64,000 nt of DNA from a virus. Below the pieces are notes generated by a model. The model ran no database searches. It had not been told where the DNA came from and saw only the letters and a program-made list of their open reading frames with translations. Positions within the stretch are counted from its first letter, which is position 1. Each line of letters opens with the position of its first letter. Of the stretch, positions 2,568-56,346 are shown piece after piece. Where the stretch lies: positions 1-64,000 of the IMG/VR virus record IMGVR_UViG_3300002835_000097; one strand, given 5' to 3'. The translations under genes were made by a program, and so were the position numbers.

Positions 2568-2572
2568 CCCCC

Positions 2573-2719: not shown

Positions 2720-2752
2720 TTCTTTCTCTCTTTCCTTTTCTCTTATATCGAC

Positions 2753-2780: not shown

Positions 2781-2846
2781 CAAAAATCTTTCCTTACAAT
2801 ATCGTAAGATTTCTTACAGCAAATATCATGCCAAAACTCTGCTTAT

Positions 2847-2928: not shown

Positions 2929-2953
2929 TCGAGTGCATACCTCTAGTGGGGGG

Positions 2954-3274: not shown

Positions 3275-3321
3275 TTTCTTTCCTTGTGAGAGTATTCTAT
3301 ATAATCTCCTTACTGGGGAGA

Positions 3322-4861: not shown

Positions 4862-5032
4862 ATGACATTTTCAAATTTAAATTCGCCCAATTTTCCAACC
4901 ATTACTGATAGCGTACTATCTATAAAAGCTTCTGGATCAGTAAATGATGAAGTTATTAATGATTTATTATTAGATAACGGAAAGAGCATAGCAGAATTAC
5001 TAAATGACCAAAAAACAACAGAACAAAGATAA
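4862..5032 (+). CDS. Small acidic protein of unknown function
   Basis: A 56-residue frame starts MTFSNLNSPNFPTITDSVLS and ends DQKTTEQR. The second half (VNDEVINDLLLDNGKSIAELLN) reads as one or two acidic amphipathic helices. AAGGA lies 9 nt before the ATG, and the divergent promoter region is just upstream. Its 3' end overlaps the sigma-factor gene by 29 nt, suggesting translational coupling and a possible regulatory role on that protein. No family is recognised. Confidence 0.6.
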   Translation: MTFSNLNSPNFPTITDSVLSIKASGSVNDEVINDLLLDNGKSIAELLNDQKTTEQR

Positions 5033-6438: not shown

Positions 6439-7434
6439 ATGAAAACAGCAATTGTTACGGGAATAACAGGTCAAGATGGTAGTTATTTAGCAGAAAATTT
6501 ATTAGACAAAGATTACAAAGTTATTGGATTATACAGAAGATCCAGTACCAATACCTTCAATAGAATCAAACATATAGATAATCCTAATTTTATTTTGCAA
6601 GAATATGACATTACTGATCCTAGCGGATGCATATCTTTAATATCATATATCCAACCTGATGAATTTTATAATTTGGCGGCCCAAAGTCATGTGGCCACAA
6701 GTTTCAAACAACCAACTACAACATTTGAAATTAATGCTATTGGTGTTATTAATGTTTTGGAGGCTATTCGACTATTTTCAAAACATACTAAGTTTTATCA
6801 GGCTAGTACTAGCGAAATGTTTGGGCGAAATTACTCAGTTGATAGTGATGGTAACAAATATCAAAATGAAGAAACCTCCTTATTGCCACAAAGTCCTTAT
6901 GCTGTAGCTAAGTTAGCTAGTCATCGAATGGTTCAAATATACAGAGAGGCTTATAACTTATATTGTTGTAGTGGAATACTATTTAATCATGAAAGTCCAC
7001 GACGCGGCGAAAACTTTGTAACGCGTAAGATTACCAGATATATTGGTCGATTAGTTAATAACAAACTACAGCCAGATGAGAAATTGCGATTAGGAAACAT
7101 AAAAGCAGTTAGAGACTGGGGACATGCTAAAGACTATGTTGAAGCTATGAGACTAATGCTAAATAACAATATAGCCGCAAATGATTTTGTTATTAGCACC
7201 GGACAATGCTATAGTGTTGAGCAGTTTTTGCAAATAGCTTTTGGTCTAATAAATAAAGATTGGAATAATTATGTTGTTATAGATCCTGAATTCTACAGAC
7301 CAGCCGAAGTAGATTATCTGAGAGGAAACTCTGATAAAGCTAAAAAGTTACTAGGTTGGGAGCCTAAAATACCATTCGAAGATTTAGTCAAAGATATGGT
7401 AAATCAAGATATTGAGATAACAAAGAATGATTAG
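6439..7434 (+). CDS. gmd: GDP-mannose 4,6-dehydratase
   Basis: The 331-residue protein is an extended short-chain dehydrogenase. It has a Rossmann GxxGxxG at G8-G11-G14 (TGITGQDGSYL), the family STSEMFG motif at 123-129, catalytic Y154xxxK158 in SPYAVAK, and the conserved ESPRRGENFVTRKI and LGNIKAVRDWGHAKDY segments. The enzyme converts GDP-D-mannose to GDP-4-keto-6-deoxymannose, the precursor of GDP-fucose, GDP-rhamnose and GDP-perosamine. Phage copies are thought to alter host surface sugars or supply sugars for modification. Its position between packaging genes is unusual. GGAG precedes the ATG; it overlaps the HNH gene by 8 nt. Confidence 0.93.
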   Translation: MKTAIVTGITGQDGSYLAENLLDKDYKVIGLYRRSSTNTFNRIKHIDNPNFILQEYDITDPSGCISLISYIQPDEFYNLAAQSHVATSFKQPTTTFEINAIGVINVLEAIRLFSKHTKFYQASTSEMFGRNYSVDSDGNKYQNEETSLLPQSPYAVAKLASHRMVQIYREAYNLYCCSGILFNHESPRRGENFVTRKITRYIGRLVNNKLQPDEKLRLGNIKAVRDWGHAKDYVEAMRLMLNNNIAANDFVISTGQCYSVEQFLQIAFGLINKDWNNYVVIDPEFYRPAEVDYLRGNSDKAKKLLGWEPKIPFEDLVKDMVNQDIEITKND

Positions 7435-27900: not shown

Positions 27901-28188
27901 AATAGCGGTCAAATATTATCAGGAACAATTAATATAATAGGATCTCGTAGTGATGGTTCAGCAGTGGCTCGATATCTTAGACAATTTACTATAAAAAATG
28001 TTGGTGGAACAACCAGTTTAGTTGGATCTATAATAACACTAGGAACAGACGAGGCTGCTGGAACAAGTATCAGTATCACTGCTGACAATACAAATGACTT
28101 TTTAAGTATTAAAGTTACAGGAATAAGTAGTCAAACATGGAGATGGGTTGCTGTTGTTGATTGCATCAAAACAAAATATGGAACATGA
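24916..28188 (+). CDS. Tail fibre with YadA-head-type repeats
   Basis: The 1,090-residue protein has an N-terminal part with GNVGIGT-type shaft repeats, a module (about 425-490) nearly identical to the fibre at 18988-21933, and then about 22 tandem repeats at about residues 593-950. Each repeat is about 14 residues or more of the form T(I/V)GGG-x-x-N-x-A-x-G. These match the left-handed parallel beta-roll repeats of the YadA/trimeric autotransporter head (Hep_Hag). A globular C-terminal domain follows (NNTATEMGLDG to the end). It is a trimeric adhesin-like fibre. Late promoter box 28 nt upstream of the ATG. Confidence 0.85.
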   Translation: MPDIIITPSSGIIDFFPVSTRVGRIEGSGNTINIINPSGFIAVSGSGLSINTSSPNATFHAYSATSGATLLNIEGTNGSLFSVIDNLSGTLMSVNNNAGLPVFEVFSDDRVVAGRFGQNDFIMTSGGNVGIGTGVPSSKFHVVGISTFNGDVSSTGSFIAGSGSATNPSFEFIEDVDTGMFSPASNVIGFATSGVERLRVDSVGNIGIGTVSPTSRLQVSGLITANSGNFTNSLQVNGTGVWHSGNFDSSNIVRTTGTQTISGVKTFSEGLKVVGNDAGIPIELGVSQDAIVLFGKTSNGLGIGSNSFNFSDSSTNVIDSRELLIGLNANDPILTISRGLLFAGNSGVGVINYYDNGAAVSANRLIFDVTPATTLASANTTLRTTTEDGNNIVVNLPNTSGTLALLTSINTSQITGTLPVNKGGTNITSYSNGQLLIGSGTSLVANTLSAGTGIAITNGSGTITINTSGLQTILTNPVTGTGTGASTSGYLPRWNSTSGLSNSIIYQSGNNIGIGTSTPSGQLHVIGSGIFSSGIIASNISVTDNMISATNTNGNLIIKPNASGALQADDAGNSRGIYSVDLQRSRVSVSGVAHGSYSVIGGGSNNNAMGPLCTIGGGSNNTAGGDYYPGNCSTIGGGENNIAVGEKSTVGGGSSNSAGGNYSIVGGGQSNSAGAPHSTVGGGIGNSAIANKSTISGGSYNSSSGEYSIVGGGRSNSAAGYISAVCGGNSNSASGSLSTVCGGDDNTAGADASTIAGGKTNTISAFANYSTIAGGQYNYTGSSYSSFYGLYAFVGGGYSNAIYSSYSTIGGGENNTIGSDTYSDSLFTKSVIGGGSNNTCDGVAATVGGGISNTASGYHCTVAGGFSNSASSYESTIGGGNSNSATATGSTVGGGRYNTASGNSDSVVCGGSNNLASGPGSTIAGGLSNTASGYASAVVGGIDALASSRGEISHATGKFADDGDAQHSIFVLRTKTTNNTATEMGLDGASVRLTINSGQILSGTINIIGSRSDGSAVARYLRQFTIKNVGGTTSLVGSIITLGTDEAAGTSISITADNTNDFLSIKVTGISSQTWRWVAVVDCIKTKYGT

Positions 28189-41493: not shown

Positions 41494-44400
41494 ATGGCAA
41501 CTTTTAATCTAACAGCACAGTTGAATCTTAAAGGTCCAACAAACGTTAAGCAAATAGCTGCTCAAATTAAAAAAGATCTTGGCGCTCTTAATGCAAATGT
41601 ACAATTTAAACTTGATCCGGCAGCATCAAAAAATGTTGCAGCATTATCGTCTTCTTTAAAAGTTTTGAATGCTAATTTTGCCTCAACTGTCAAATCAGCC
41701 AATGCTGCCACATCAGCAATAAAGGCTTTTGGTAATAGCGTAAATTCTGTTAAAATTAACAATGTCCCTCAACAAATTAATCAAACTTCATCAGCAATTG
41801 CTAAATTAAATAAAGTATCCTCATCAACATCTGGAGGATTGCAAAATGCCGCAACAGAGATGCAGGAATTCGGCAAGCAAGCTGGTTTAGCAGTTAGAAG
41901 ATTCGTTGCATTTAGTGCTGTTACAAGTGTTATATATGGAGTAACAAATAGTATAAATAATGGTATACAGGCTTTTATTGATTATGATAAAGAGCTTGTA
42001 AAATTACAACAGGTTACTGGAGAATCTGCTGCCGGATTATCCAAACTACAATCTCAAATTAGTAATTTAGCTGTAGAATTTGGTGTTAGTTCTAAAGAGC
42101 TAACTCAAGTAGCATCAACATTAGCTCAGGCTGGTTTAAGTGCCAGAGAAACTGAGAAAGCTTTAAAAGCCTTAGCACTTAGTAGTTTAGCTCCGTCATT
42201 TGATAATATGAATGAGACTGTGGAAGGTAGTATTGCTATAATGAGACAGTTTGGTATTAGTGCTGCTGATTTGGAGGCATCATTAGGTGCGGTTAATACC
42301 GTGGCAGCAAGGTTCGCAGTAGAATCTAGTGACATCATTACCGCCGTGCAAAGAACAGGTAGCGTATTCGCTACTGCGAGTAAAGGGGTAAGCGAAGGAA
42401 AAGACGCTTTAAATGAATTTATTTCGGTATTTACCAGTGTTAGAGCAACTACCCGTGAAAGCGCTGAAACTATTGCTACTGGATTACGAACAATATTTAC
42501 TCGTATCCAAAGAGGAACAACGATAGACGCCCTAAAAGAGTTTGGTGTTAACTTAACAGATGCTGAGGGTAAGTTCGTTGGAGCGTATAAGGCTGTCGAA
42601 TTGTTAAGTAAAGGATTAGGTAAAATAGACCCTAGAAGTTTGGACTTTTCAAGAATAGTTGAAGAACTTGGTGGATTTAGACAAATTGGTAAAGTTATTC
42701 CATTAATTCAACAATTTAGTGTGGCTCAACAGGCGTTAAAAGTTGCTCAACAAGGACAAGGTTCGCTAGCTAAAGATGCAGCAACAGCACAATTAAGTTT
42801 AGCTAATCAAATAAGTAAAGTTCGTGAAGAATTTTTCTCACTATTTCGTGAAATAGGTCAATCCAAAGGATTTCAAAGTTTAATCAGAGGAGCGTTGTCT
42901 CTAACTAGTGGTTTGATAAAAGTAGCAGATGCTGTTAAAGGAATTCTACCAGCATTAGCAGTACTTGCAGCATTTAAGGGATTTAAAGCATTAACAGAAT
43001 TTACTACAGGATTTGCCACAGGAGTTAAAAGAGGACCAGATGGTAAAGCTAATGGCGGAGTTATAAGAAAATTCGCACGAGGTGGTGTTGTTCCTGGTAC
43101 TGGTAGTGGAGATACTGTACCAGCAATGTTAGAGCCAGGAGAATTTGTTATACGTAAAAAAGCTGTTGAAACTATTGGTACTGATAGTCTTCATAGTATG
43201 AATAAGTATGGAAGTGGTGGAAGTATACGAGCAGGAAAATCAAATAGAAGAAAAAGATTTGGGGGTGGAGGTAAACTATATGACGATATTGATGTTCAAG
43301 AATATTCTAAGTCTAACAAGCAGTATGCTGGTAGGCTCAAAGCTTATGATGCAGATAGTATAAATTTATTGGTTGATCCAACACAAACACTAGTTAATAA
43401 ACGTTTTAAAAAACTAACTGGCGATTTAATTTATCCTAGTGAAAAAGGTAAATTTAAAGTCACATCCAGACTTGAAGGAATAGATGCTTTTGAAATTAAA
43501 GCATCAAAAAAAGAAAGAGAAGAGTATGCTAGTCAAGGAGGAAAAGGTCCGGCATATGCTAGTAATAGAGAGAAAGGCAAAAGAGCCAAAGATATAACTA
43601 TAGATTTTATAAGTGGACTTGGTAAAGAAAAATTAGCTAAAATTTTTATCGACGCTAATAAAGTAGATTACTATGGCAGACCAATGGCGGAAATTGGTGC
43701 TCTTAATAAAAAATTAGTAGGAGAGAATGTTGCAAAATATAGTGGAACTAAAAAAGGTCAAGACATTATTCAAGCAGATAAACTAGCAAATAGACTAGAG
43801 ATAATGAAGAAAAATTCAGGATTCGGCAATACTAATAAGTCATCATGGGATAGGGTTATTAAAGATGATTATATGTTTAACTATATGCCAGCAGGATCTA
43901 AGGATAGGTTTAACAGTTCAGGGAATATAATACAAGACGACTCCCGGCCATTAAAAACTATCTCTGATATTGGTTTTATTAAGAAAATGACAGAGACTAA
44001 AGGATTGGCTAAGTTCATGGTTGGAGGAAAAGTAGAAAGAAAAATTGGAGTAGTTGATACGGACGTACTAAGAGATGAGGCTAATGCGGCGATAGTTAGG
44101 CCAGCAATGGAAAAGCTTGGAATAACTGATGTTAGTGACTATACAACAAAACTTGGAGAATTGGCAGGCAATGCTAGAAAAAGTGGATCGCTATCTAGGT
44201 TTAGAGCTATTGCTGGAGCTGCTGGAAGTGGAAAAAGCAGTTTAGCAACCGGAAAGGGAGCTAATGATGATGCTACTTTAAGAAAAACAATTCGCTCTCA
44301 AATATTAACGCCTGAAGATATAGACAAAGTTAATGAAGTTATAGTATTAACATCGACAGCTAGTCAGACTAAATTAGATGCTTATTTAAAAGATGTTGAT

Positions 44401-47400
44401 AGAGCATATGTATTAAGCTCTAATAGCAGAGAGGAACAAGATAGAGTTAGGTCAAATAGAGAGAGCAGAGACATTACAGGAGAAGGATTGTATGGTCGTA
44501 AACCAGGAACCACAAGAGCAGCTGATATTGATTTTGGTCTGGAAGAAACCATATTACGAGATGAACTTGGCAAAAGAGCCACAGTATTAGGAAGAAAAAA
44601 AGATAGTTTCGGTTTAAGACGTAAAAGAGAAAGCGAACTACCAGAAATAGTTCAGGCTGGTGGATTTTATATGGGTGGTTTTGCCCCACCAACAAGAGGC
44701 CATAGAGGAGCTTTAGATACTTTATTAGAAAACATGTTAGCAAAGAACCCAAACTCTTCTTTAGAAGATATTCTTGTTAGTGTTGCTCCTGACCTTCCAA
44801 TGATTGTTGATAAAGAAGGCATAGACCACGCTGCACGATATGGTATTTTCCCATCAGACATAAGAACCTTATTTAGCCAAATGAATTTTGGAAATGCTAT
44901 GATTAGCACTCAAAGCCAGACGGGTGGTGGTTTACCAAAATTTATGGAAGTTACTGATGCTGGAGATAGAAGAAAATTCGCCAGATTAAAAGGAGCCATG
45001 GCAATAACTTCTGGTAAAGACGATAAAACATTGGGCAAATACCAAAGAGCAGGAATAGACGTTACAGATATTCCTAGAATAGAAGATATTAGTGCTACTG
45101 CAGTTAGAGACGCATTATTTAATGGTGACGATAAAACACTTACTAGTTTAATGAATCCTGATATAGCATCAATATTAATGGGCAATAGAGCACAATTACG
45201 TAATCGTAGCACTATGGTTCCTATGCTCATCGAAGAAATACAAAAGTTTGTTGATCAAGATAAAGTACGATCCAATGCTGAGGTTACAGAAATATTATCA
45301 AATGCTCCTGGTGGTCCATATGGTAATGTTAGTGCTGATCTAAAGAAAAATTATCCAGAAATAGCTGAGCAAGTTAAGCAGATAAGAGACAAAAGAGATA
45401 GAGTATCTAAAGGAGCATTCGGCTATAGAGCATTTAATATAATAAGCGCCCTATCTGCCAAATATCCAGAAACTTATGGGTTAGACCCATCAAGAAAATC
45501 CGCCGTATCTGCGCAACCATCAGACATAACCAGAGAGGCCATAGCAGCACAAATTTCAGAACAGATGGCTGGTGAGTTTGGTGGAGTTCCAACAGCTATG
45601 CCTTCTGGACTAGAAGAGGCAATACTAAAAAATGTAGAAAAAGCCACCCAGGTCAAAAAGTCTTCTGGAATATTACCAACACAAGGATCAGAGATTCTAA
45701 AAAGATTTGGAACTCAAAGATTACCAAATGATCCAAGTTTTGGCCCATTCTCAGGAAAAACAGTAAGAGATACAGCCGAAGGAGGAAAATTAAAATACTG
45801 GAATTCTGCTTTTAGACCAGAAACAAAAGAAGATAAGCTCGCTTACTATATTGCAACAAGAGACTATCTAATAGACAAATTTAATGAATCACAAGGAATT
45901 CAAAAGGCTACAGCTCTAGAAGATACAACTAATGCTGTGTTATCTTCCAAACAATTAGGATTAGTTGGATTAAATCCGCTAGGATATACTGGATTATTGG
46001 GTCCAGAGACTTGGAATCTTGGAGTCGATCCGTCTGGCCAAGAAAGATCAATAGACGCTTCAATAGTACAAAGAGGACTACCAACAGAATTCCAAAACGT
46101 TATTGATTATCTTAGTGGACAAACAGCAGAAATAGTACAAGGAGCATCAAAGCTTCTTGGTATTACTCCTAAAGAATTAACTAAAAAACAAAGAGAAACA
46201 TTAGGACAAGGAAATATTGAGGGTGCTTTACTAGAACAAATTTTTGGATCAGCAGATGCCACAATATTAGACGATGCATTAAGAACAAGACCAATTGACT
46301 TTCCAATGGGTATCGGACCTAAAGCAGCAAAAATATTTGGTATCGATCCTGATATTCCAACAGAAGTTAAAAGAACAATAGATAGTAATAGTAGAGGTAA
46401 AGCTGTTGAAGAATTTCAAAAATATTTTAGACAACAATACGGCATTCCTGATCCAGAAAAAGTAACAGCTTTTGCTGACGGCGGAGAAGTATATACTCCA
46501 CAACAACTAGTCTCATTAGCCAAATACAGAACAGGACCATTTCCTGGTGGTGGAACTGATAGCGAATTTATAAATAGATATTTAGAAGATAATGATTCTT
46601 TCATGGAATATCTTAAAACTTTCCATGCTGATCCTCCAAAGGCGTATGATGCCACAAAGAATGCTGCAAAAGATTTATTGGAAATGTTTACTAGCCAAGA
46701 ATCAATGAGTGGCTCAAAGCGTTCTGGTAAATTATATTCCACTGTTGCTGGTGGTAAATTAAAAACCATTTTAACTCAAATTAATAATCCTTTAAACTCT
46801 AATAAAGATATTTCTGATGCTATTGGTAAAAACTTTAATTTAAATGGCTCATTATTATCAACTAGTGAATCCCCGGATACAGCTAGTGTATTTCAGCCAG
46901 AAAATGGTTCTAGTGCAATGTTGAGTATCATTAGAAATAAAAATATTCCATCTATTGATGTTGATAAGGCAATATTTGATACCTCCACAGAAGAAGATAT
47001 TATAAAAGCATTATCAAAATATATAGACCCTGTCTCTGGAAAAAGCGGAGCAGATTTTCTAAGCAGAAGTCGATCAGCAACACGAATAGAAAAAGAATTC
47101 ATTCTCCCACAAACTTCAAAATTTAGAATAGATGATATTGATAGAATATTTAGTAAAGATCAAGAAGATAAATTATTAGGTGGAAATATTCGTCATATAG
47201 AAGGAATGAAAGTTCAGCAGTTTAAAGATGGAGGAATGGCATTTGGTAAAGAAAATGAATTTGAAAAAATAAGACAAAAAATATTAAATCAATATCCAGA
47301 TATTAATTTTAGAATTTCCAGACGAAAGAATGGTTTTGGATACAATATATTAGGCGGACTAAAACAAGAAAGTAGTAACATTGGTAATTATGCAGAATTT

Positions 47401-50400
47401 AAGCAAGCTGGTAATCTTTCTAAAATACAAGAAGTTGCCGATAATATGGCATCCTCTCTGCTATATGAATATGGTCCAAATATAGATCCGTCTCTTCTAA
47501 AGAAGATGCAGAATAAAAGAAAATTTGCAAATGGTGGGTCTGCGCAGGATACTGTACCAGCATTATTAACTCCTGGTGAATTTGTTGTTAATAAAAAAGC
47601 AGCAGAAAAAATAGGATATGGCAAGTTAGAAAAATTAAATAAAGCAGATAAAATACAAGGATACAATAAAGGAGGAATTGTAGGAGGAGTACAAAGATTT
47701 GCTTTAGGTGGAGGTGTAGATGGCTTTCTTTCTGGATTACAAAGCATAGCAAGTAATTTAGGAAGAACACAAAATATTACTAATAATCGCCCAAATTCAA
47801 TAGATACTAGTACAATAGCTGTAGACCCATCTATTCTGCAAGATACAAAAGCATTTGTGGACACTCTTTATGATGCCGGAGACGGCATGAAGTATTTAAA
47901 TCGTTTATTAAATGAAAATAAACAATTATCTATACAAGCAGTATTAGAAGCTGGTAATAAAGATCTAGAAAGATTAAAAATTAGTGGAGCATCTATTGAT
48001 AAAATTATAGAAGCTGAAAAGGCATTGTCTAATATTAGAAATAAAGGACTTATTGATGTTACTAATCGTCAATTTTTAGAGTCTGGATTTAAAGAAAGTT
48101 CAGTTGGTAAAAAATTAGGATCAGGAGCTACGCAACAAAAAATATTATCTTTAGCAGAAAAAGAAGAGCGACGATTAATAGATAAAAGAAAAAAGGCTAT
48201 AGAAGCTGATATAGTATCATCATCCAAACAACCAATATCTCCATCAGACTTAGCTGATCAGGTCGCCCAAGCTATATCTTCTGAATTAAATGATATTAAA
48301 ACGCAAGCATTTTCTAGAGCTACAGCAGCGGCTACAGGAACAAAAACTTCTACTGGCATAAAAGGGAATATAACAGAAAGTGAATTAAAAAATCTAAATA
48401 TAACTGGAAATGATATTCAAAAATATATTTCTGATTCTATGAGAGATAGAAAAACTCTCAGACAAATGGATCAGCAGTTAATAGCTATGAGAATGGAAGA
48501 GTATAAGAATGCTGGAACTGTTAGAGGTATTAGCGTTGCTTCTGCAGAGGAAGCTAAAAAATTAGCACAGGAAGAAGTTAGCAAACGAAGAGAAGCTATA
48601 AATGATCTGGCAAAAATGAGAGGAGAACGAGGTGTTGGAGCTGCTGGATTAATGGATACTAGAAATAGTCCTATTAATCGAGCATTTAGAGAAAGATACT
48701 TTACTGGAGATCTAGGAAAAAGTATGCAGAGAGGATTGGGCGACATTGGATTAGCGGCAGGATTAGTTGCTGGACAAGGAGACAACATAGCATCAGCATT
48801 ATTTGATACTAAAACCGATAAAGGCAAAATACAAGCGGCAGATACAGGCGCAAGAATCGATAAAGCAGCAACAACACTGTCTGTTGGTCTAACAACATCA
48901 GCACAATTAGCTGCTATAAATCCTATGTTAGGAGCTGCTGCTGCTATAGGCACAGCACTGTATGCTGGCGCTGATGCTGTATATGATTTCTCAGGCACTG
49001 CCAAAAAAGCAGCTCAAGAAATGGCAAGAGCTTTATTAAATGATAAATTATCTGCTGCTAGTGATAATCTATCAAATGCTTTGGAAAAATTAAGCAGAGA
49101 TGCTAATAACGTTGAACTTAGAGCAAAAACAGCATCAACCATTAAAAGCTTAACAGATACTGCCCTGGAAAGCACAGCAGATACAGGAATAACAGGAAAG
49201 AATAAAGCAGAGACGGAGCGTAATTGGTCAGATTTTGGCAGAGGAATATTGTTGGCCATTGGAGAAATTGGAGTTGGTATGAATCCATTCTACCAAGACA
49301 TGGACCCTGTAACGCTTGCAAAATCCAAACAAGGCTCTTATGGCATGGAAGAAGCAAGAGTTGATGCTCAAAAAGAAGCAGAAAATTTTCAAAAAATAGC
49401 TAATGCTGGATATACCGATCTAGAAAGGCTATATGCAAAAGGATTCACTAATGATCAAATTATGGATCCTACTAATGAAGCTGGAAATATAGTTAGAGAA
49501 TCTATAAAAGGCATGATTCTAGCTGATTCTGAAAAACGAGCTTTATATATGGCTGCCGGACCACAAGGTAAAGAAGCTATTGCTGGTACAGCAGCGCAAC
49601 AAGCATTTTTAGCTAATGATGAATTAGCAAAAGCTTCTCAAGAAGCTGCAAAATTAGCAAGAGCTATGGAAATTGCTGATAAAGCAGGACGAAGATTAGC
49701 AGCAAGTTTTGATAAAATAGCAGATATAGTAAATGAATCTGTTAATAGAATATCATTTGAGTCTGATGCTAGAGTAGAAGCGGCAAACCAATATGCATCA
49801 TCATTACGTGGAGAGTCCAGAGGTTCTGGTCCAAAACTAAGAGAAAGAAATATTTTAGAAAATCCCAATGCATATTCTGAAGCAGAATTTACTGCAGCAC
49901 TACAAAGTGCCACAGCAGGATTAAGTGACGGACTTAGAAAACAACTGATTGGCGGTGCTCAATTACAACAAAACATACCAAAAAATATAACAAAAAGCAT
50001 AGCAACTGTTTTAGACAAGAGCGCCGGCTCAGGAGTAGATGAACTTAAAAAAGCAGCAGTTGATACTGCTAAAAATGAAATAGAAAATAATGCTAATTTA
50101 TCTAGACAACAAAAAGATGAATTAAAACAAATAGCTACGGCCAGGATAGAAACTATAGCTAAAAAAGCTAAAGATAACAATGCCGATAATACTACGCAAG
50201 TATCAGAATTTAGAAAAGAACTAGAAGAAGGTACTAGTGTTTTAGGTGATTTTGGTAAAAAATTATTAGATTCTATAAAAGGTCTATCATCATTCAAAGA
50301 AGGAGCATTAGATAAATTTGCTAAGGGCTTGAATGAAGCTAGCAAAGCAGCTAAAGAATCTCAAAACTATTTTAGAAGATCAAGAGAAATCTCTAACGAA

Positions 50401-53400
50401 GGCAATATGAACCTAAGAGAAGTCTTGAGTGGATACGGTGAAACATATGATGAACAATTTAATAGAATTATGGGTGATGTTGGTGGTTTAGCAGGAGGTG
50501 AAACAACTGTTCAGGGAATTAAAAATAGACAAATAATGCTTGCTGAGCAAAGAGATACTCTACAGAATCAACAAAATACCCTTACAGATAAAGACGCTTT
50601 GCGTAACAATGTTGAACAGCTTAATAAATTAGATGATCAATTAAGAGATAATAGAGAAGCATTAGATATGCTTGCTAATAGTACAGAATTAGTAGATAAA
50701 GCTTTCAACAACTTGCAAAATACTGCAGAATTACAGAATAATCGACAAAATTTTGTTAATCAATTATTAACTAATACGCCAGAAGAAGCAGATAAACTTA
50801 ATCAAAGTTTTATTAGATTACAACGAAATCTTTCTGGAGGACTCAATAGTGCATATAATCAAAGAGACGCTAGAAAAGCATTTAATGAAACATTATTTAA
50901 GACCGGAAATGTAAGAGAAGCAACTCGCGCCGGAAATACTGTTCTTGCTAATCAAAGAAAAGAAACACTATCATTGATGCAGGATCCCGGATTCAGAGCT
51001 GCTCAAGAATTACAGATAAGAAATCAATATGCTCAGAACCGAGGAAGACCAGGAGTAGATGCTGATCAAGCAGTAGCAGAATATTTTCAAAAACAGCAAT
51101 TACAAGTAACCAAACAAATGGCGATAGAAAGTGGAATGATAAATAATCCACTTGTTCAACAGTCATTGGCTGTCCTAGAGGATCGCAAAGCAGATCCTGC
51201 TATGCAACAGGCTGCTGAAAGATATTTAGAAGCTGTTGGATTAAGAGCCGATGCTACAAAAGCACAAGGAGAACTGGCTTTATTAGAATCACAATCCATA
51301 CTAAAAAATTCTAATGATAATTTACGTATTAGTATTGATGATTTAAGAGCAAGCATCGAAGGAAATCTGAATAATGCTAATATAGGTATGGACGCTGCTG
51401 GTAACAGAATAGTTAATCCTGGGGTGGCTGTTCCTGCTCCTGCTGCGGCCAGATCATCTGGAGGATTAATATATGCTAGTAGTGGAAAGCTTATTGATTT
51501 TAAGCCTAAAGGTACCGACACTGTTCCTGCCATGTTAAGTCCTGGCGAATTTGTTATCAATTCTAAGTCTACACAAAAACATTTACCATTATTGAAAGCT
51601 ATTAATAGTGGAAATTATAGTAAGGGTGGAGTGGTTTATTTACAAAAGGGTGGTAAAGCAGGAACTAATATTGACGAAGATATAGATCTAAATAAAGATG
51701 GAACAATTACAGATGAAGAACGACAGATTTATCAACGTCGAAAAGAATTATATCTAACAAGATCATTTGGACAAATGGATTATAGACAAGCATATTTTAC
51801 TAGACCATTCGGATATAGTAAAGGAGGGCCAGTAAATTATTTAGCCAATGGTGGCGAAGTACAAAAAAGAAAAGAAGAAAGAATAGATGCTCAAAAAGAA
51901 TCATGGATGATGTCAGAAGCAGCCGGAAGAAGACCTGATGAGGTAGTTTCTAGAACATCATCTAGTTGGGCAGAATCTCAGGTAGGTAGTAATAAATGGC
52001 AAAGTATGACAGAAGAACAAAGACAATCAGAAACTAAAAAATATGAACCAGAATTTCAAAACAGATGGGATAATTATAATAATAGACAGAATGACGCACA
52101 ACTCAGAAGTGCTAACGATGCAGGATATGGCAGTATAAAGGAGGATCCTAACTCTGGTATTGTTGGGGTTAATTTTTATAATGAAGAAAAGAAAAGAGCT
52201 AAAGAAAGATTTGAAAAAGCTAGTGCGGCTGAAGCTGAAACGGAAGCATCAAATAATCAAATGACTCAAAGCTCTATGGAGCAACCAGCTCCAGTAGCAG
52301 TTCCTCTACCCGATATGACAAAAATACCTTGGGGCAGAGGAGCGGCAATAAAGATTGGACCAACACAAGAAACTATCAATGAGAGAAAAAAAATTAAATC
52401 TGAAGAGTCACGAAGACGATCATTATGGCTTAAAGGAAGCAAAGGAATAAGCTCAGAAGAAGAAACAGAATATGCAACTTTAAAATCTAATCAAATAAAA
52501 AGAGAGGTAGGCCCGTATACTGTAGAAAAAGATCGTAATATTTCTTCTTTAGTAAATAGTGCCTATCGTAAAGGTGCTCAGTCTAATGAGATAACATCAG
52601 AAGAAAGATCAGCCCTAAAAGAGTTAGGCTCTGATCCTAGAAATAGAGGAAGTTTACGAGCCCTATCATTTAGTGCTGCGTTGCCTCCAATAACTAGTAA
52701 CGGAGGAAAACCCGACCCTATTGATCCAGCAACTGTCGCTAGAATAAATCAGAGTGCAAGACCTGACATAGCCGATCCTGCAGTCTCTTCAGGTGTTCAA
52801 ACAGGAAATCCTTCAGAAGGAATGGTTAATCGTACAGCTAATAATAGAGCTTATGAGGCTAATCAGGCTAAAAAGAGAAAAATGGCTGGATTAGCATTAG
52901 GATTGTCAACAGAGGCTGATCAAGAAACAGCAGACCTTTTGGAACAAATACTTTTTGGTGGACCTATAGAGAGACCTATAGAGAATAATCCAGCAAGAGA
53001 AAAAAGACAAGCAGCTTTAACTACAAATATTATAAACCAAGCCTTAAATAAAAAAACACCAGATTATTCCATAGCCACCCCAACATCTGGTGATCAAACC
53101 ACTAAAACTGAACGACTAACCAAAGAATTTATTGGATCTTCAGCAAGCAGACGAGCATTTAATGCAGTTGCTAATAATGGCGGAACATTAGCAGAAGCCA
53201 ATGCAGCAGCTAAAAATGCCATACAATCACAGGCTGAAAGATCAAAAAGCATAGTGGAAAAAAGAAAAGACGAAGGTAAAAAAGTAATAGACTATTATGA
53301 ACAAAGACTAAATGAAGCCAGAGCAGACAACGACGGAGATGGACGACCAGACTTTTCAAACGAAGAAATAGACAAGAGAAAAAGAGAAAGAGATAGCGCA

Positions 53401-56346
53401 AGAGTTAATTTTTCTGGTAACATGAATCCTATTGGTCGTCAGCCAGAATCATATTACTCATCTAGAAAAAATGCTGAAAGATGGGGAGCTAAACAATATA
53501 CTAGTGCTGAGGACTACTTTGCTGCTCAAGGAGCAAGACAAGATTATCTTGACAGACAAGCAAGAATAAGAAAAGAAAATGAGGCATCTGCTGAAGGATT
53601 TAAGGCAGGGGTTTCCCATGTTGTTAATATGACGGAACCACAATATGCTGCGGCATTTAGATCCACATATGGAGATACAGCAGCCGATGCTCTTGGTAGA
53701 GCTACTAGAATGGATCCATCAGTAGGGCGTAATAATGAAAATACAAGAATAAAAGACGAAGAGAAAAAAACACGAGAAACATTCGATAGGGCTAAAAATT
53801 ATGAGGGGCCACTAGGAAATGCTGCTTATGTTGGAGATACTTTAACACAAGCTATTGTTGGAGCATTACCACAAGATCGTGCTCGTAATGATAGTCAAGA
53901 CATGAAAGACATTAATGCTCGTCGTGATGCTTATAGAGAAAGAGAAAAACTAGCTGGAAATAAAGATTTTAGTTTTGAAAATAGTAGTAATTCTTTTTAT
54001 AGAGGTCTTGGAACTACAGGCAGATACATTGGAGATCTTACTGCAGTAGCTACTAGTCCCTTTAGAATTATTGGCGGAGGTGGGGGAGCATTGTTGGGTG
54101 GGGCATCATTAGGCATTGCAGAAACTCAAAAGGTGCTTGGTTATGACGATACTATGGCTAGAGCTTTTGGCGATAAGGCATTAAGTCAAGCGTCTGATTC
54201 TGTTGGTGCTGGTATTTCAGATATTAATAGACTAGCTGAACAAACAGGCAGATTAGCCACCTATGCCGGTATTCCTTTTGGATTAGAAGCAGATCCTTTA
54301 CTTAAAAATAATTCAGCAGGAATGATATTCGACGAAAGAAATGTTTCTGAAGCTGGACCTTTAGGGCCCGTAGTTAGGGCCGCTAATGTGATTAGAGATG
54401 TTACTGCTGATTCGGTTATGCCATTACCAATTCCTGGAGCTGGTAAAGTTAGAAGCGTTGCTGGCAGATTGGATGATATGGACAAAGCTGCAGAAAAAGC
54501 CTATAAAGTTTCGCAAAGAGCCTACGAAGCAGCACAAAGATCATCCATAGCCAGTGCCACAGAATCTACTATTCCTAAAATGATCCAAAATTATGTAGAA
54601 AAATTGCCAATACCTTCAGAGGCTACAGGTTCTATAGGGTCCATGGGACGGTTAAGCAGAGGGGAAGCTTTATCTAGATCATTAAAAGATTTGAGAGAAG
54701 TAAAAGTGCCGTCATTACGCAGTGACCCTATGGATATGTCTAAACTTGGTAAATCAGCAAAACAATCACAACCAATATTAGATCCTTTACAAGAAGCTGC
54801 CAAATCAGCTGCTAAGCCCAGAATTACGGCAGCAGAATATACAAAACGTGCAGAAGAAGCAAGATCTGCTGCCAGAGCCAGCAAGCCAAGAGTTACTGCT
54901 GAAGAATTTATGGCCAGAACAAAACCAGATGCAACAACATTACCAATCAAACGACCACTTCCAGAAGTTATAGATGTTACTGATACCAAAACACTAAGAC
55001 AAGTTCAAGAGAATTTAGCTAGTGATTTGGCTGATTATGCTACTCCAGCAAAAAGAGATCAGTTCTTGTCAGAATTTGTTGAAAAGTCTACACCGCAATC
55101 GGTATCTGTTGATCCTAAAGCACTAGCTGAGGCCAAAAAGAAAGTTGCTAAGACCATAGGTCCGGTAAAAGCCCCAGACGGCATGGTTACTTCAGGTAAC
55201 AAAATGATATTTAAGGACGCTAAGACAAAAACATCAGTAGTACAGCATGAATTAGCCCACTCTTTTCAAACTAAAACTGCTGGAATGAAGGGTGATCCTT
55301 TTGGAGGTAAAAAAATACAGCTATCAGGACTAATGAAGGAAATCGAGTCATTTGTTGATGATCCGAAGGGATTAGTTGCTATAACAGGAGGCAAAGGATA
55401 TTCTGCAAGTCAAATCAAAAAAGCCCCATATGAACTACTAAGCACCTTGATGCAACATATGGAAAAGGTAAAGGGTAATAAAAGAGCAGAAAATATTTTA
55501 AAAAAATTAATGAAATTCCATGGATATAGTAAGGGAGGATTAGTATATGCTAATAATGGAGCTTTTATTAATGCTAACAATGGAACTACAGATGATACTC
55601 CTGCAATGTTAACTAAAGGAGAATTTGTAATAAATAGACAAGCTACTAAAAAACATATGCCACTTCTCAATGCTATTAATAGTGGTCATTTAAATAGAGG
55701 CGGAATTGTTAATTATTTGGCCAATGGAGGTATAGTCGGTCCACAATATCTTGCTGCTGGTGGTCGATCAATGGCTAGTATATCAAATTCTAATATATTA
55801 CCAGAACTATTAAATAAATTATCAAATACTGGCATGAATTCTTCTGGTGGAGCCTCACAACTAGCACCTCTTTCTAATGTTGTACAGACACTTAAACAAA
55901 CCGCATCCTCTGCCGGTGGTGTATCTAATAATGTTAGTATAGATACGGCTAATATATCATCATCCATACAGGATGCTGTTACAAATGCTATTGGTCAATT
56001 TAATGAATATACAGAGCAAATTGGGGCTAATTTTACTGAACAGTTTGGTGCTGCACAAAAAAGTTTGTCATCATCTATCAACACATTCCAAACAGCCACC
56101 GCTCAATTTGGAGAACATGCAAATGCTATACCAACGTCATTATCTGCTAATGTTACGCAAACAACATCACTTCACCATATTGGTTTAGAATCTATAAAAG
56201 GTAATATGGAAAAAAATATATACGACAATACTTCTGTTAGTTCAAAAAATATTGCCCAAGACACCGTCATGCAATATGATAAAACTGTTTTTGAAGGAGG
56301 CATGAATAGTGCCGCTAAACCAAGTATTATGGGACGACCATCATAA
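41494..56346 (+). CDS. Giant tape measure protein with embedded enzyme-like domains
   Basis: The 4,950-residue protein sets tail length and is expelled with DNA. Visible parts in order: TP901-type tape measure domain (about 130-455); hydrophobic stretch (about 483-503); anchor motifs of the form DT(V)PA-x-L-x-(P/K)GEFVI near 527-562, 2010-2041, 3336-3380 and 4694-4738; SNase-like domain (about 600-755; D621, R659, D664, E667, R729); P-loop GAAGSGKS (908-915); nucleotidyltransferase (T1067-x-G-H1070 and ISATAVR 1199-1205); ADP-ribosyltransferase-like domain (STS 1789-1791, E1866-x-E1868, no clear Arg); a second hydrophobic stretch (about 2465-2500); long helices (about 2650-3300); EF-hand-like loops (3398-3409 and from 3945); and metallopeptidase-like HELAH (4585-4589) with E4647. 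AGGA precedes the ATG. Enzyme activity is inferred from motifs. Confidence 0.92.
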   Translation: MATFNLTAQLNLKGPTNVKQIAAQIKKDLGALNANVQFKLDPAASKNVAALSSSLKVLNANFASTVKSANAATSAIKAFGNSVNSVKINNVPQQINQTSSAIAKLNKVSSSTSGGLQNAATEMQEFGKQAGLAVRRFVAFSAVTSVIYGVTNSINNGIQAFIDYDKELVKLQQVTGESAAGLSKLQSQISNLAVEFGVSSKELTQVASTLAQAGLSARETEKALKALALSSLAPSFDNMNETVEGSIAIMRQFGISAADLEASLGAVNTVAARFAVESSDIITAVQRTGSVFATASKGVSEGKDALNEFISVFTSVRATTRESAETIATGLRTIFTRIQRGTTIDALKEFGVNLTDAEGKFVGAYKAVELLSKGLGKIDPRSLDFSRIVEELGGFRQIGKVIPLIQQFSVAQQALKVAQQGQGSLAKDAATAQLSLANQISKVREEFFSLFREIGQSKGFQSLIRGALSLTSGLIKVADAVKGILPALAVLAAFKGFKALTEFTTGFATGVKRGPDGKANGGVIRKFARGGVVPGTGSGDTVPAMLEPGEFVIRKKAVETIGTDSLHSMNKYGSGGSIRAGKSNRRKRFGGGGKLYDDIDVQEYSKSNKQYAGRLKAYDADSINLLVDPTQTLVNKRFKKLTGDLIYPSEKGKFKVTSRLEGIDAFEIKASKKEREEYASQGGKGPAYASNREKGKRAKDITIDFISGLGKEKLAKIFIDANKVDYYGRPMAEIGALNKKLVGENVAKYSGTKKGQDIIQADKLANRLEIMKKNSGFGNTNKSSWDRVIKDDYMFNYMPAGSKDRFNSSGNIIQDDSRPLKTISDIGFIKKMTETKGLAKFMVGGKVERKIGVVDTDVLRDEANAAIVRPAMEKLGITDVSDYTTKLGELAGNARKSGSLSRFRAIAGAAGSGKSSLATGKGANDDATLRKTIRSQILTPEDIDKVNEVIVLTSTASQTKLDAYLKDVDRAYVLSSNSREEQDRVRSNRESRDITGEGLYGRKPGTTRAADIDFGLEETILRDELGKRATVLGRKKDSFGLRRKRESELPEIVQAGGFYMGGFAPPTRGHRGALDTLLENMLAKNPNSSLEDILVSVAPDLPMIVDKEGIDHAARYGIFPSDIRTLFSQMNFGNAMISTQSQTGGGLPKFMEVTDAGDRRKFARLKGAMAITSGKDDKTLGKYQRAGIDVTDIPRIEDISATAVRDALFNGDDKTLTSLMNPDIASILMGNRAQLRNRSTMVPMLIEEIQKFVDQDKVRSNAEVTEILSNAPGGPYGNVSADLKKNYPEIAEQVKQIRDKRDRVSKGAFGYRAFNIISALSAKYPETYGLDPSRKSAVSAQPSDITREAIAAQISEQMAGEFGGVPTAMPSGLEEAILKNVEKATQVKKSSGILPTQGSEILKRFGTQRLPNDPSFGPFSGKTVRDTAEGGKLKYWNSAFRPETKEDKLAYYIATRDYLIDKFNESQGIQKATALEDTTNAVLSSKQLGLVGLNPLGYTGLLGPETWNLGVDPSGQERSIDASIVQRGLPTEFQNVIDYLSGQTAEIVQGASKLLGITPKELTKKQRETLGQGNIEGALLEQIFGSADATILDDALRTRPIDFPMGIGPKAAKIFGIDPDIPTEVKRTIDSNSRGKAVEEFQKYFRQQYGIPDPEKVTAFADGGEVYTPQQLVSLAKYRTGPFPGGGTDSEFINRYLEDNDSFMEYLKTFHADPPKAYDATKNAAKDLLEMFTSQESMSGSKRSGKLYSTVAGGKLKTILTQINNPLNSNKDISDAIGKNFNLNGSLLSTSESPDTASVFQPENGSSAMLSIIRNKNIPSIDVDKAIFDTSTEEDIIKALSKYIDPVSGKSGADFLSRSRSATRIEKEFILPQTSKFRIDDIDRIFSKDQEDKLLGGNIRHIEGMKVQQFKDGGMAFGKENEFEKIRQKILNQYPDINFRISRRKNGFGYNILGGLKQESSNIGNYAEFKQAGNLSKIQEVADNMASSLLYEYGPNIDPSLLKKMQNKRKFANGGSAQDTVPALLTPGEFVVNKKAAEKIGYGKLEKLNKADKIQGYNKGGIVGGVQRFALGGGVDGFLSGLQSIASNLGRTQNITNNRPNSIDTSTIAVDPSILQDTKAFVDTLYDAGDGMKYLNRLLNENKQLSIQAVLEAGNKDLERLKISGASIDKIIEAEKALSNIRNKGLIDVTNRQFLESGFKESSVGKKLGSGATQQKILSLAEKEERRLIDKRKKAIEADIVSSSKQPISPSDLADQVAQAISSELNDIKTQAFSRATAAATGTKTSTGIKGNITESELKNLNITGNDIQKYISDSMRDRKTLRQMDQQLIAMRMEEYKNAGTVRGISVASAEEAKKLAQEEVSKRREAINDLAKMRGERGVGAAGLMDTRNSPINRAFRERYFTGDLGKSMQRGLGDIGLAAGLVAGQGDNIASALFDTKTDKGKIQAADTGARIDKAATTLSVGLTTSAQLAAINPMLGAAAAIGTALYAGADAVYDFSGTAKKAAQEMARALLNDKLSAASDNLSNALEKLSRDANNVELRAKTASTIKSLTDTALESTADTGITGKNKAETERNWSDFGRGILLAIGEIGVGMNPFYQDMDPVTLAKSKQGSYGMEEARVDAQKEAENFQKIANAGYTDLERLYAKGFTNDQIMDPTNEAGNIVRESIKGMILADSEKRALYMAAGPQGKEAIAGTAAQQAFLANDELAKASQEAAKLARAMEIADKAGRRLAASFDKIADIVNESVNRISFESDARVEAANQYASSLRGESRGSGPKLRERNILENPNAYSEAEFTAALQSATAGLSDGLRKQLIGGAQLQQNIPKNITKSIATVLDKSAGSGVDELKKAAVDTAKNEIENNANLSRQQKDELKQIATARIETIAKKAKDNNADNTTQVSEFRKELEEGTSVLGDFGKKLLDSIKGLSSFKEGALDKFAKGLNEASKAAKESQNYFRRSREISNEGNMNLREVLSGYGETYDEQFNRIMGDVGGLAGGETTVQGIKNRQIMLAEQRDTLQNQQNTLTDKDALRNNVEQLNKLDDQLRDNREALDMLANSTELVDKAFNNLQNTAELQNNRQNFVNQLLTNTPEEADKLNQSFIRLQRNLSGGLNSAYNQRDARKAFNETLFKTGNVREATRAGNTVLANQRKETLSLMQDPGFRAAQELQIRNQYAQNRGRPGVDADQAVAEYFQKQQLQVTKQMAIESGMINNPLVQQSLAVLEDRKADPAMQQAAERYLEAVGLRADATKAQGELALLESQSILKNSNDNLRISIDDLRASIEGNLNNANIGMDAAGNRIVNPGVAVPAPAAARSSGGLIYASSGKLIDFKPKGTDTVPAMLSPGEFVINSKSTQKHLPLLKAINSGNYSKGGVVYLQKGGKAGTNIDEDIDLNKDGTITDEERQIYQRRKELYLTRSFGQMDYRQAYFTRPFGYSKGGPVNYLANGGEVQKRKEERIDAQKESWMMSEAAGRRPDEVVSRTSSSWAESQVGSNKWQSMTEEQRQSETKKYEPEFQNRWDNYNNRQNDAQLRSANDAGYGSIKEDPNSGIVGVNFYNEEKKRAKERFEKASAAEAETEASNNQMTQSSMEQPAPVAVPLPDMTKIPWGRGAAIKIGPTQETINERKKIKSEESRRRSLWLKGSKGISSEEETEYATLKSNQIKREVGPYTVEKDRNISSLVNSAYRKGAQSNEITSEERSALKELGSDPRNRGSLRALSFSAALPPITSNGGKPDPIDPATVARINQSARPDIADPAVSSGVQTGNPSEGMVNRTANNRAYEANQAKKRKMAGLALGLSTEADQETADLLEQILFGGPIERPIENNPAREKRQAALTTNIINQALNKKTPDYSIATPTSGDQTTKTERLTKEFIGSSASRRAFNAVANNGGTLAEANAAAKNAIQSQAERSKSIVEKRKDEGKKVIDYYEQRLNEARADNDGDGRPDFSNEEIDKRKRERDSARVNFSGNMNPIGRQPESYYSSRKNAERWGAKQYTSAEDYFAAQGARQDYLDRQARIRKENEASAEGFKAGVSHVVNMTEPQYAAAFRSTYGDTAADALGRATRMDPSVGRNNENTRIKDEEKKTRETFDRAKNYEGPLGNAAYVGDTLTQAIVGALPQDRARNDSQDMKDINARRDAYREREKLAGNKDFSFENSSNSFYRGLGTTGRYIGDLTAVATSPFRIIGGGGGALLGGASLGIAETQKVLGYDDTMARAFGDKALSQASDSVGAGISDINRLAEQTGRLATYAGIPFGLEADPLLKNNSAGMIFDERNVSEAGPLGPVVRAANVIRDVTADSVMPLPIPGAGKVRSVAGRLDDMDKAAEKAYKVSQRAYEAAQRSSIASATESTIPKMIQNYVEKLPIPSEATGSIGSMGRLSRGEALSRSLKDLREVKVPSLRSDPMDMSKLGKSAKQSQPILDPLQEAAKSAAKPRITAAEYTKRAEEARSAARASKPRVTAEEFMARTKPDATTLPIKRPLPEVIDVTDTKTLRQVQENLASDLADYATPAKRDQFLSEFVEKSTPQSVSVDPKALAEAKKKVAKTIGPVKAPDGMVTSGNKMIFKDAKTKTSVVQHELAHSFQTKTAGMKGDPFGGKKIQLSGLMKEIESFVDDPKGLVAITGGKGYSASQIKKAPYELLSTLMQHMEKVKGNKRAENILKKLMKFHGYSKGGLVYANNGAFINANNGTTDDTPAMLTKGEFVINRQATKKHMPLLNAINSGHLNRGGIVNYLANGGIVGPQYLAAGGRSMASISNSNILPELLNKLSNTGMNSSGGASQLAPLSNVVQTLKQTASSAGGVSNNVSIDTANISSSIQDAVTNAIGQFNEYTEQIGANFTEQFGAAQKSLSSSINTFQTATAQFGEHANAIPTSLSANVTQTTSLHHIGLESIKGNMEKNIYDNTSVSSKNIAQDTVMQYDKTVFEGGMNSAAKPSIMGRPS

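What the first reader, a model, noticed from the sequence alone, without database searches (positions are those of the whole stretch)
41494..56346. Tape measure protein that looks like a multi-enzyme polyprotein
One uninterrupted 4,950-codon frame combines a normal tape-measure N-terminus and four PGEFVI-type anchors with at least five segments resembling independent enzymes or binding domains (SNase, P-loop, nucleotidyltransferase, ADP-ribosyltransferase, metallopeptidase). Single lytic or peptidase domains in tape measures are known; such a collection would be unusual. Because tape measures leave the tail ahead of DNA, the domains could be delivered into the host as injected effectors. By the usual scaling of about 1.5 angstrom per residue, the full length would predict a tail near 0.7 micrometre, or shorter if these domains do not contribute.
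Basis: partly seen in the sequence, partly recalled or inferred. Interest (0 to 1): 0.92.

Follow-up and report, generated by a model that had tools for sequence, protein, structure and literature searches.

The report
Tape measure protein carrying enzyme cassettes
A giant protein that should run the length of a bacterial virus's tail carries a set of swappable enzyme-like modules, possibly a toolkit that enters the cell together with the viral DNA.

Summary
Observation confirmed; interpretation partly supported. The 4,950-codon frame is real, and related phage contigs hold tape-measure frames up to 7,577 codons. It has an ordinary tape-measure N-terminus, four PGEFV anchors and several enzyme-like modules. 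Best supported in the window: a HIGH-type nucleotidyltransferase (Z 13.5 to NadM, 12.8 to PPAT). SNase is clear in relatives' tape measures (3 of 39 records over the Pfam cut-off) and probable in the window. ART is clear in two relatives; the window copy is sub-threshold and lacks the usual Arg. Metallopeptidase: motif only. P-loop: conserved, unassigned.

New: the modules are exchangeable cassettes. Homologous DNA blocks end at short FAxGG linkers (40 of 89 ends within 10 residues, 4.7 expected; held-out pairs 19 of 45, 2.5 expected). Twenty-one tape measures with the kinase-NTase cassette show 21 cassette strings. Window and L007 share 99-100% identical enzymes behind N-termini 84% identical.

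I read it as a polyvalent tape measure whose enzymes probably enter the host with the DNA. Delivery, cleavage, activity and host are untested.

The parts
41494..43053 (+). Tape-measure N-terminal core (residues 1-520), including PhageMin_Tail 188-380
   Evidence: PF10145 1.1e-21, PHROG tape-measure families; cluster 0, in 40 of 40 tape measures mapped
43072..43263 (+). Anchor 1 with linker FARGG (residues 527-590, PGEFV motif at 543)
   Evidence: identity to L007 rises here from 64-83% to 94-100%
43267..44019 (+). SNase-like cassette (residues 592-842; nuclease core ~592-765)
   Evidence: six invariant columns D,D,R,D,E,R in 9 sequences; window group vs Pfam-positive group hhalign prob 84, E 7.1e-6; PF00565 over cut-off in tape-measure frames of 3 of 39 related records; window group alone finds no nuclease in PDB
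44020..46476 (+). Kinase-like / nucleotidyltransferase / 1487-1661 cassette (residues 843-1661)
   Evidence: cluster 2, in 21 of 40 tape measures
44215..44238 (+). P-loop GAAGSGKS (residues 908-915)
   Evidence: G, A, G, G, K invariant in 10 aligned sequences; domain type unresolved
44653..45219 (+). HIGH-superfamily nucleotidyltransferase (residues 1054-1242; TRGH 1067-1070, ISATAVR 1199-1205)
   Evidence: AF2 model matches NadM Z 13.5 and PPAT Z 12.8; PF01467 sub-threshold in tape-measure frames of 11 of 21 records, not in the window's
45952..46491 (+). Widespread domain 1487-1666: E...DFPxGLG...PT(D/E)xKRT; PD-(D/E)XK-like motif pattern, fold unresolved
   Evidence: alignment of 21 members; no credible sequence or fold match in PDB
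46477..47226 (+). ADP-ribosyltransferase-like cassette (residues 1662-1911; core 1735-1905)
   Evidence: PF03496 over cut-off in tape-measure frames of L060 and L071; window copy 13.7 of 23.4 bits; SxS and ExE kept, usual Arg position Ser/Ala in 7 of 7; phrog_3895 for L071 and L064
47227..47481 (+). Small alpha-beta domain (residues 1912-1996)
   Evidence: confidently predicted in AF2 model; cluster 17, 4 members; fold matches only weak, Z at most 5.8
47524..47721 (+). Anchor 2 (residues 2011-2076)
   Evidence: DNA match to L018 restarts at residue 2019
47704..51450 (+). Central tape core (residues 2071-3319)
   Evidence: cluster 1, in 30 of 40 members; follows the kinase-NTase cassette in 18 of 18 members that have both
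51451..51663 (+). Anchor 3 (residues 3320-3390)
   Evidence: a DNA match to L018 ends at 3375
55051..55563 (+). Zincin-like metallopeptidase (residues 4520-4690; HELAH 4585-4589, candidate third ligand E4647)
   Evidence: HExxH...E(L/F)(L/F)(S/T)T shared with L008 and L030; dN/dS 0.185 vs L008; no Pfam match
55525..55764 (+). Anchor 4 (residues 4678-4757)
55756..56343 (+). C-terminal segment (residues 4755-4950)
   Evidence: cluster 12, 4 members

Best explanation
It is the tape measure protein of a long-tailed phage that doubles as a carrier for exchangeable enzyme cassettes, a 'polyvalent tape measure'. Between the N-terminal tape-measure core and the central tape core sits an array of cassettes, in the window an SNase-like domain, a P-loop plus nucleotidyltransferase plus the 1487-1666 domain, and an ART-like domain; a zincin-like domain sits further on. 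Cassettes are bounded by short FAxGG linkers or longer PGEFV anchors. Shown: the architecture, the shuffling across the family, conserved catalytic-type residues in SNase and NTase, purifying selection. Inferred: the protein is stored in the tail tube, leaves with the DNA, the enzyme part enters the cell, and a zincin may release the domains. Likely first tasks, also inferred: nucleic-acid cleavage (SNase) and NAD or nucleotide chemistry (NTase with P-loop partner, ART).
For: Tape-measure N-terminus (45 of 46 records). NTase. SNase. ART. HExxH-plus-Glu modules in many members. The kinase-NTase module was found in 28 viral loci, near-duplicates included; in 27 the same frame holds tape-measure N-terminus, the 28th is cut by the contig end. 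dN/dS of modules 0.04-0.19. Identity jump at anchor 1. Linkers mark block ends, also in pairs not used to define the linker. 21 of 21 tape measures with the kinase-NTase cassette have different cassette strings; the zincin cassette lies before it in 5 and after it in 6. Polyvalent-protein precedent, with a metallopeptidase thought to release the parts (PMC5512222, section 33).
Against: No experimental evidence of ejection, cleavage or activity. The window's own SNase group finds no nuclease in PDB by itself and the profile of the Pfam-positive relatives finds it only at E 0.04. The ART lacks the usual Arg in all seven sequences aligned. The 1487-1666 domain lacks the would-be Lys in 7 of 21 sequences and has no fold match. 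The zincins and the P-loop domain have no assigned family. Folded enzymes may not fit a tail tube unless unfolded. Virion association and host are unknown.
Confidence: 0.57

Rival explanations
1. The enzymes act outside the cytoplasm or before infection: they are cut off the tape measure during assembly, or work in the tail or the cell envelope, and never enter the host cytoplasm.
For: Known single-enzyme tape measures carry wall-cutting domains (PMC1796659, search listing with start of abstract only; YomI annotated as transglycosylase). A zincin-like domain is present.
Against: Usual substrates of SNase, NTase and ART folds (nucleic acid, nucleotides, NAD) are mostly cytoplasmic; the whole-protein Pfam scan recognised no peptidoglycan-cutting family.
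Confidence: 0.23
2. The domains are decayed or recruited as inert spacers that lengthen the tail and diversify by recombination, without enzyme activity.
For: ART Arg position is Ser/Ala in 7 of 7; the 1487-1666 domain lacks the Lys in 7 of 21; the window's SNase is divergent; complete frames range from 2,060 codons (L043) to 7,577.
Against: SNase keeps six catalytic-type residues across 19-58% identity; NTase keeps TxGH and ISxTxxR; purifying selection.
Confidence: 0.14
3. The frame is an assembly or translation artefact joining separate genes.
For: None found.
Against: Frames of 4,000 codons or more in 27 of 46 records, three of them cut by contig ends; the same modules share one frame across many contigs.
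Confidence: 0.01

Closest known systems
Phage polyvalent proteins (Iyer et al. 2017, PMC5512222)
   Same: Several unrelated activities, including ART and zincin peptidase, in one large phage protein thought to be injected with DNA (abstract; section 33)
   Different: The main text held here does not contain 'tape measure'. Here the chassis is the tape measure and the cassettes sit between repeated linkers
Tape measure proteins with wall-cutting domains: SPbeta YomI, mycobacteriophage TM4
   Same: Tape measure with an enzyme in the chain; SPbeta-type tape measures are the top named matches of the N-terminal core (about 23-26% identity)
   Different: One kind of activity, against the wall; here nucleotidyltransferase, SNase-like, P-loop, ART-like and zincin-like modules together
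NadM / NadR (NMN adenylyltransferases)
   Same: HIGH fold, NadM best structural match; NadR also joins a HIGH nucleotidyltransferase to a P-loop kinase (PMC9503650, passages)
   Different: P-loop part precedes the NTase; TxGH rather than HxGH; PPAT ties in Z; substrate unknown
Staphylococcal nuclease family (PF00565)
   Same: Catalytic-type residues; relatives' copies pass the cut-off
   Different: Embedded in a tape measure; the window copy alone is below Pfam and PDB-profile detection
ADPrib_exo_Tox / R-S-E ART family (PF03496)
   Same: SxS and ExE motifs; two relatives' copies pass the cut-off
   Different: Usual first Arg is Ser or Ala in all seven sequences aligned

Membership tests
Phage tape measure protein | Conserved tape-measure N-terminal domain | tested here: met
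   PF10145 1.1e-21; PHROG tape-measure families up to 7e-26
Phage tape measure protein | Length sets tail length | not testable with these tools
   No virion images; no Phage_sheath_1 match in 23 records, only a hint of a non-contractile tail
Polyvalent proteins | Two or more disparate catalytic domains in one polypeptide | tested here: met
   HIGH NTase in the window, SNase-like and ART-like; also SNase with NTase in L018's frame and ART with NTase in L071's frame
Polyvalent proteins | Zincin-like peptidase domain | tested here: inconclusive
   HExxH plus conserved downstream Glu; no Pfam match over cut-off (best SprT-like E 0.078 in L012) and no PDB profile match
Polyvalent proteins | Delivered into the host with the DNA | not testable with these tools
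   Inference from tape-measure biology
Staphylococcal nuclease (PF00565) | Catalytic Asp/Asp/Arg/Asp/Glu/Arg set | tested here: met
   D,D,R,D,E,R are the only invariant columns of 9 sequences incl. the window (MAFFT); residue roles recalled from knowledge
Staphylococcal nuclease (PF00565) | Profile match of the window's own copy | tested here: inconclusive
   No Pfam match alone, none in PDB; hhalign to a relatives' group prob 84, E 7.1e-6; that group's profile finds the window at E 0.04
HIGH-superfamily nucleotidyltransferase | (H/T)xGH and ISxTxxR motifs on the HIGH fold | tested here: met
   Motifs invariant in 10 aligned sequences; Z 11.7-13.5 over 136-159 residues in the 50 rows shown
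NadR (NMN adenylyltransferase plus ribosylnicotinamide kinase) | NMNAT followed by a P-loop kinase | tested here: inconclusive
   Both parts present, opposite order; P-loop part unassigned
R-S-E ADP-ribosyltransferase (PF03496) | STS and ExE motifs | tested here: met
   ExE in 7 of 7; STS in 5 of 7 incl. the window, SVS and SSS in two
R-S-E ADP-ribosyltransferase (PF03496) | First-strand Arg | tested here: not met
   Ser or Ala in 7 of 7; hence called ART-like, activity open
PD-(D/E)XK nuclease | Glu, Asp and (D/E)xK on the restriction-endonuclease fold | tested here: inconclusive
   Motif pattern present in most of 21 sequences, Lys missing in 7; no fold match
Zeta toxin kinase (PF06414) | Match to family profile | tested here: inconclusive
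   Foldseek rank 5, prob 0.98, E 3.9e-3; a BFVD protein named zeta-toxin-domain at rank 7; no PF06414 match inside a tape-measure frame among 40 records

The most novel reading that the evidence does not exclude
A family of aquatic phages uses the tape measure as an evolvable effector carrier: enzyme cassettes are traded between phages at built-in FAxGG linkers and PGEFV anchors, much as polymorphic toxins trade tips, and the tail delivers a ready-made kit (nuclease, NAD/nucleotide enzymes, ART, peptidase) that acts before any phage gene is expressed, possibly against NAD-depleting or nucleic-acid-based defence.
Probability: 0.43. Interest if true: 0.9.

Novelty: new variant of a known kind. 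Interest (0 to 1): 0.8.

Why it matters
Tape measures are normally read as rulers with at most a wall-cutting domain. A family in which the ruler also carries exchangeable nucleotide- and nucleic-acid-type enzymes would give phages a way to act in the host before transcription, would help explain why these tape measures reach 5,000-7,500 residues, and makes the open question of what else leaves the tail with the DNA testable domain by domain.

Tried and rejected
Whole-protein Pfam and PHROG searches gave the tape-measure core plus chance-level rows, and PDB gave nothing. Segment-wise Pfam on the window was sub-threshold (ADPrib_exo_Tox 0.0077, HIGH_NTase1_ass 0.068, no SNase). Pfam on 29 sequences of up to 1,681 residues (the window and 28 relatives) gave HIGH_NTase1_ass in 5 (best 4.9e-4), SNase in 2 (best 1.9e-5) and nine families in one member each. 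Four modules (kinase-NTase, SNase, 1487-type, ART; the zincin was not tried) had no tblastn match in named phages at E 0.01. The kinase-NTase profile in PDB hit UPF0348 (3gmi) at 0.0019 on the ISxT stretch and UvrA P-loops. PDB profiles A1 and A13 returned ubiquitin repeats first, rejected as repeat-summed noise; A3, A4, A5, A11, A12 found nothing credible. AF2 of 1487-1990 failed over the ART (pLDDT under 50 at model 172-429).

So the window's SNase is called probable, not certain, and I lowered the best explanation from 0.60 to 0.57 and the novel case from 0.45 to 0.43.

Zeta toxin and AAA_33 for the P-loop domain: no match over cut-off in the frames. HAD phosphatase, suggested by an FIDDDxxNI motif in some relatives: no Pfam support in the pieces scanned, left as a lead. 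The YHGS-type ART-like module: DUF3990 at 0.069, phrog_4700 (unknown function) at 0.0016, nothing in PDB. L015's SNase piece alone: no Pfam match. MP-profile hits in L016, L019, L042 were judged drift on reading them. A first clustering chained through anchors and was redone with anchors masked. Block ends at PGEFV anchors alone: 16 of 122 (random mean 6.7%, highest 17.2%), collapsed 15 of 94 (random mean 6.6%, highest 14.9%), so modest. L039, L010, L018 aligned poorly with the window's zincin and are not used. L056's ART motif match did not align and was left out.

Prior description was sought in the open-licence PMC library only; in what I saw (listings; passages of PMC5512222, PMC12619734, PMC7824862, PMC9503650; abstract, outline and section 33 of PMC5512222) none describes a multi-enzyme tape measure.

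Full report
What is there. Window 41494-56346 (+) is one ATG-started frame of 4,950 codons. Residues 188-380 match PhageMin_Tail at 1.1e-21 and the first 500 residues or so match five PHROG tape-measure families. The window is part of an 88,057-base virus record. Upstream lie a terminase large subunit, a portal protein and a weak major-head match. The top named matches of the N-terminal core are tape measures of SPbeta-type Bacillus phages, at about 23-26% identity. No tail-sheath profile was found in 23 records of the family, which hints at, but does not show, a non-contractile tail.

A family of giant tape measures. A pattern-based scan with the N-terminal core gave 39 viral loci. Of 46 records examined (44 virus records, 2 metagenome bins), 45 carry the tape-measure profile; 27 have frames of 4,000 codons or more, three of them cut by contig ends, the longest 7,577 codons. 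The frame is therefore not a local assembly accident. One 100%-identical contig (L006) may be the same virus, and several other contigs are near-duplicates of each other.

Nucleotidyltransferase and P-loop. Ten sequences, down to 40% identity to the window's, keep the P-loop glycines and lysine, TxGH and ISxTxxR. An AlphaFold2 model of 838-1262 (mean pLDDT 72.8) matches NadM at Z 13.5 (rmsd 3.7, 159 residues) and phosphopantetheine adenylyltransferase at Z 12.8; these are tied within 1, so the substrate is open. PF01467 matches at the NTase place in tape-measure frames of 11 of 21 records, nine of them over nearly the whole model, all below the cut-off (best 20.0 of 21 bits), none in the window's own record. 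The best viral structure matches are cytidyltransferase-like proteins. The P-loop half has only a weak zeta-toxin fold match and no family match over cut-off. The pairing resembles NadR, which joins an NMN adenylyltransferase to a P-loop kinase (passages of PMC9503650), but in the other order.

SNase. The Pfam SNase model passes its cut-off inside the tape-measure frames of three of 39 records, L009, L018 and L021; L056's copy matches a PHROG endonuclease family at 5.9e-5. Nine sequences (the window and eight at 19-58% identity to it) have D, D, R, D, E, R as their only invariant columns, the staphylococcal nuclease catalytic set as I recall it, and their joint profile hits staphylococcal nuclease over most of its length at 6.2e-12. 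That score leans on the Pfam-positive rows. Tested apart, the window's group (window, L007, L008) finds no nuclease in PDB, and the profile of L018, L056, L009, L021 and L072 finds the window at the expected place only at E 0.04 among 43 proteins; profile against profile gives probability 84 and E 7.1e-6 with the R-D-E and GR stretches aligned. With the same position behind anchor 1, I call the window's SNase probable and the family's clear.

ART. PF03496 passes its cut-off in tape-measure frames of L060 and L071 (4.2e-8, 5.2e-8) and is below it in L064, L065, the window (13.7 of 23.4 bits) and L007; 18 of 24 records have no match at E 0.05; of 14 control genomes one rings, none over the cut-off. 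L071 and L064 match phrog_3895, ADP-ribosyltransferase exoenzyme, at 1.5e-4 and 6.9e-4. The window's domain aligns with these: ExE in 7 of 7, STS in 5 of 7. All seven have Ser or Ala where R-S-E transferases usually have Arg, so activity is uncertain. A different ART-like module, 'HG(S/T)...GFY', sits in seven relatives, on motif evidence only.

Metallopeptidase. HELAH at 4585 with a glutamate in ELLST at 4647, shared with L008 and L030. Another zincin-like module, YHE(L/M)(T/G)HQL...EEFLTT, occurs in twelve relatives with HExxH and the downstream Glu. No Pfam match over cut-off and no PDB profile match supports these, so they are motif-level.

The iterated profile of 1487-1666 matched 37 frames, duplicates included; among frames over 700 residues it was absent from L033, L034, L039 and L043. 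Its pattern, Glu, then DFPxGLG, then PT(D/E)xKRT, looks like PD-(D/E)XK, but the Lys is missing in 7 of 21 aligned sequences, and neither sequence nor fold searches matched credibly. I leave it unresolved.

More than decoration. Motif composites occur in 0 of 2,000 shuffles, except the bare P-loop (138 of 2,000). dN/dS between the window and relatives is 0.08-0.14 in the N-terminal core, 0.13 SNase (L008), 0.04-0.16 kinase-NTase, 0.10 for 1487-1660, 0.09 ART, 0.19 zincin, against 0.32 in an approximately matched part of the central tape. Several dS values exceed 1 and are unreliable, and the window-L007 SNase pair has no amino-acid difference.

Cassettes. Between the window and L007, nucleotide identity in 60-codon blocks is 64-83% up to residue 540, 94-100% from 541 to about 1380 except one block at 84%, 87-92% to about 1620, then lower. 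So 99-100% identical SNase and kinase-NTase proteins sit behind N-termini that are 84% identical. Between the window and L018, matches include 1-594, 1387-1654 and 2019-3375, with breaks near anchors 1, 2 and 3 apart from the middle block. Across 43 tape measures, linkers of the form [FYLM][AMKSEVRN]xGG number 614 where shuffles give 118, and 40 of 89 collapsed ends of homologous DNA blocks fall within 10 residues of one (random mean 4.7, highest of 2,000 draws 12). I wrote that motif after seeing block ends in the window, L007, L008, L010, L011 and L018; in pairs without these six, 19 of 45 ends fall within 10 residues (random mean 2.5, highest 8). Alignments naturally stop where modules stop, so this shows cassette borders, not that linkers drive recombination. 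Ends at the longer anchors alone are enriched only about twofold.

With anchors masked, 40 tape measures (three bin-derived ones left out) break into an N-terminal core (40 of 40), a central core (30 of 40) and a changing set between them: the kinase-NTase cassette in 21, a zincin in 11, and ART, SNase and many unassigned ones; 115 of 159 clusters are singletons. The 21 kinase-NTase members show 21 different cassette strings, unlabelled singletons counted alike and three incomplete frames included; in 18 of 18 that also have the central core the cassette precedes it (strings copied by hand). The zincin cassette precedes the kinase-NTase in five members and follows it in six; L018's copy, merged into one segment, also precedes it.

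Twenty-eight viral loci hold the kinase-NTase module, near-duplicates included; in 27 the frame also holds tape-measure N-terminus, in the last the contig ends first. A genome scan with the N-terminal core gave seven contigs in metagenome bins of different phyla, four under 6 kb; they do not fix the host.

How it most likely works. Tape measures fill the tail tube and are thought to help lead the DNA through the envelope (established biology; review passage). The cassettes lie nearer the N-terminus than the central core does. If, as I recall for siphophages, the C-terminus sits at the tip, the enzyme array would be among the last parts to leave and closest to the DNA. The zincin could release the modules, as proposed for polyvalent proteins (PMC5512222 section 33). 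These steps are inferred.

Comparison. It works like a polyvalent protein and is built on a tape measure. The 2017 polyvalent-protein paper's main text does not contain the term tape measure, nor does the NAD/ADP-ribose virus survey, and nine searches of the open-licence library showed me no description of multi-enzyme tape measures; most subscription papers and all bioRxiv preprints are outside that library. I rate it a new variant of a known kind.

Noticed in passing
window 5004-5657: Sigma-factor-like protein (phrog_1740, 5.8e-6), upstream of the terminase gene.
   Followed up: no
window 6439-7431: Nucleotide-sugar epimerase (phrog_540, 8.9e-75).
   Followed up: no
L018's record G013, contig position 24058-24366: A free-standing 151-codon CTP_transf_like nucleotidyltransferase over the Pfam cut-off, apart from the one in the tape measure.
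   Followed up: no
records of L012, L013, L024, L060, L065, L078: Free-standing frames of about 300 codons with weak, sub-threshold zeta-toxin profile matches, outside the tape measure.
   Followed up: no
L009, L012, L015, L020, L021, L023, L024, L036 and others, just upstream of or at the start of the 1487-type domain: A motif like FIDDDxxNI, reminiscent of HAD phosphatases; no Pfam support in the pieces scanned.
   Followed up: partly
window 18988-21930 and 24916-28185: Two long proteins with tail-fibre profile matches (phrog_31660 and others), encoded before the tape measure.
   Followed up: no
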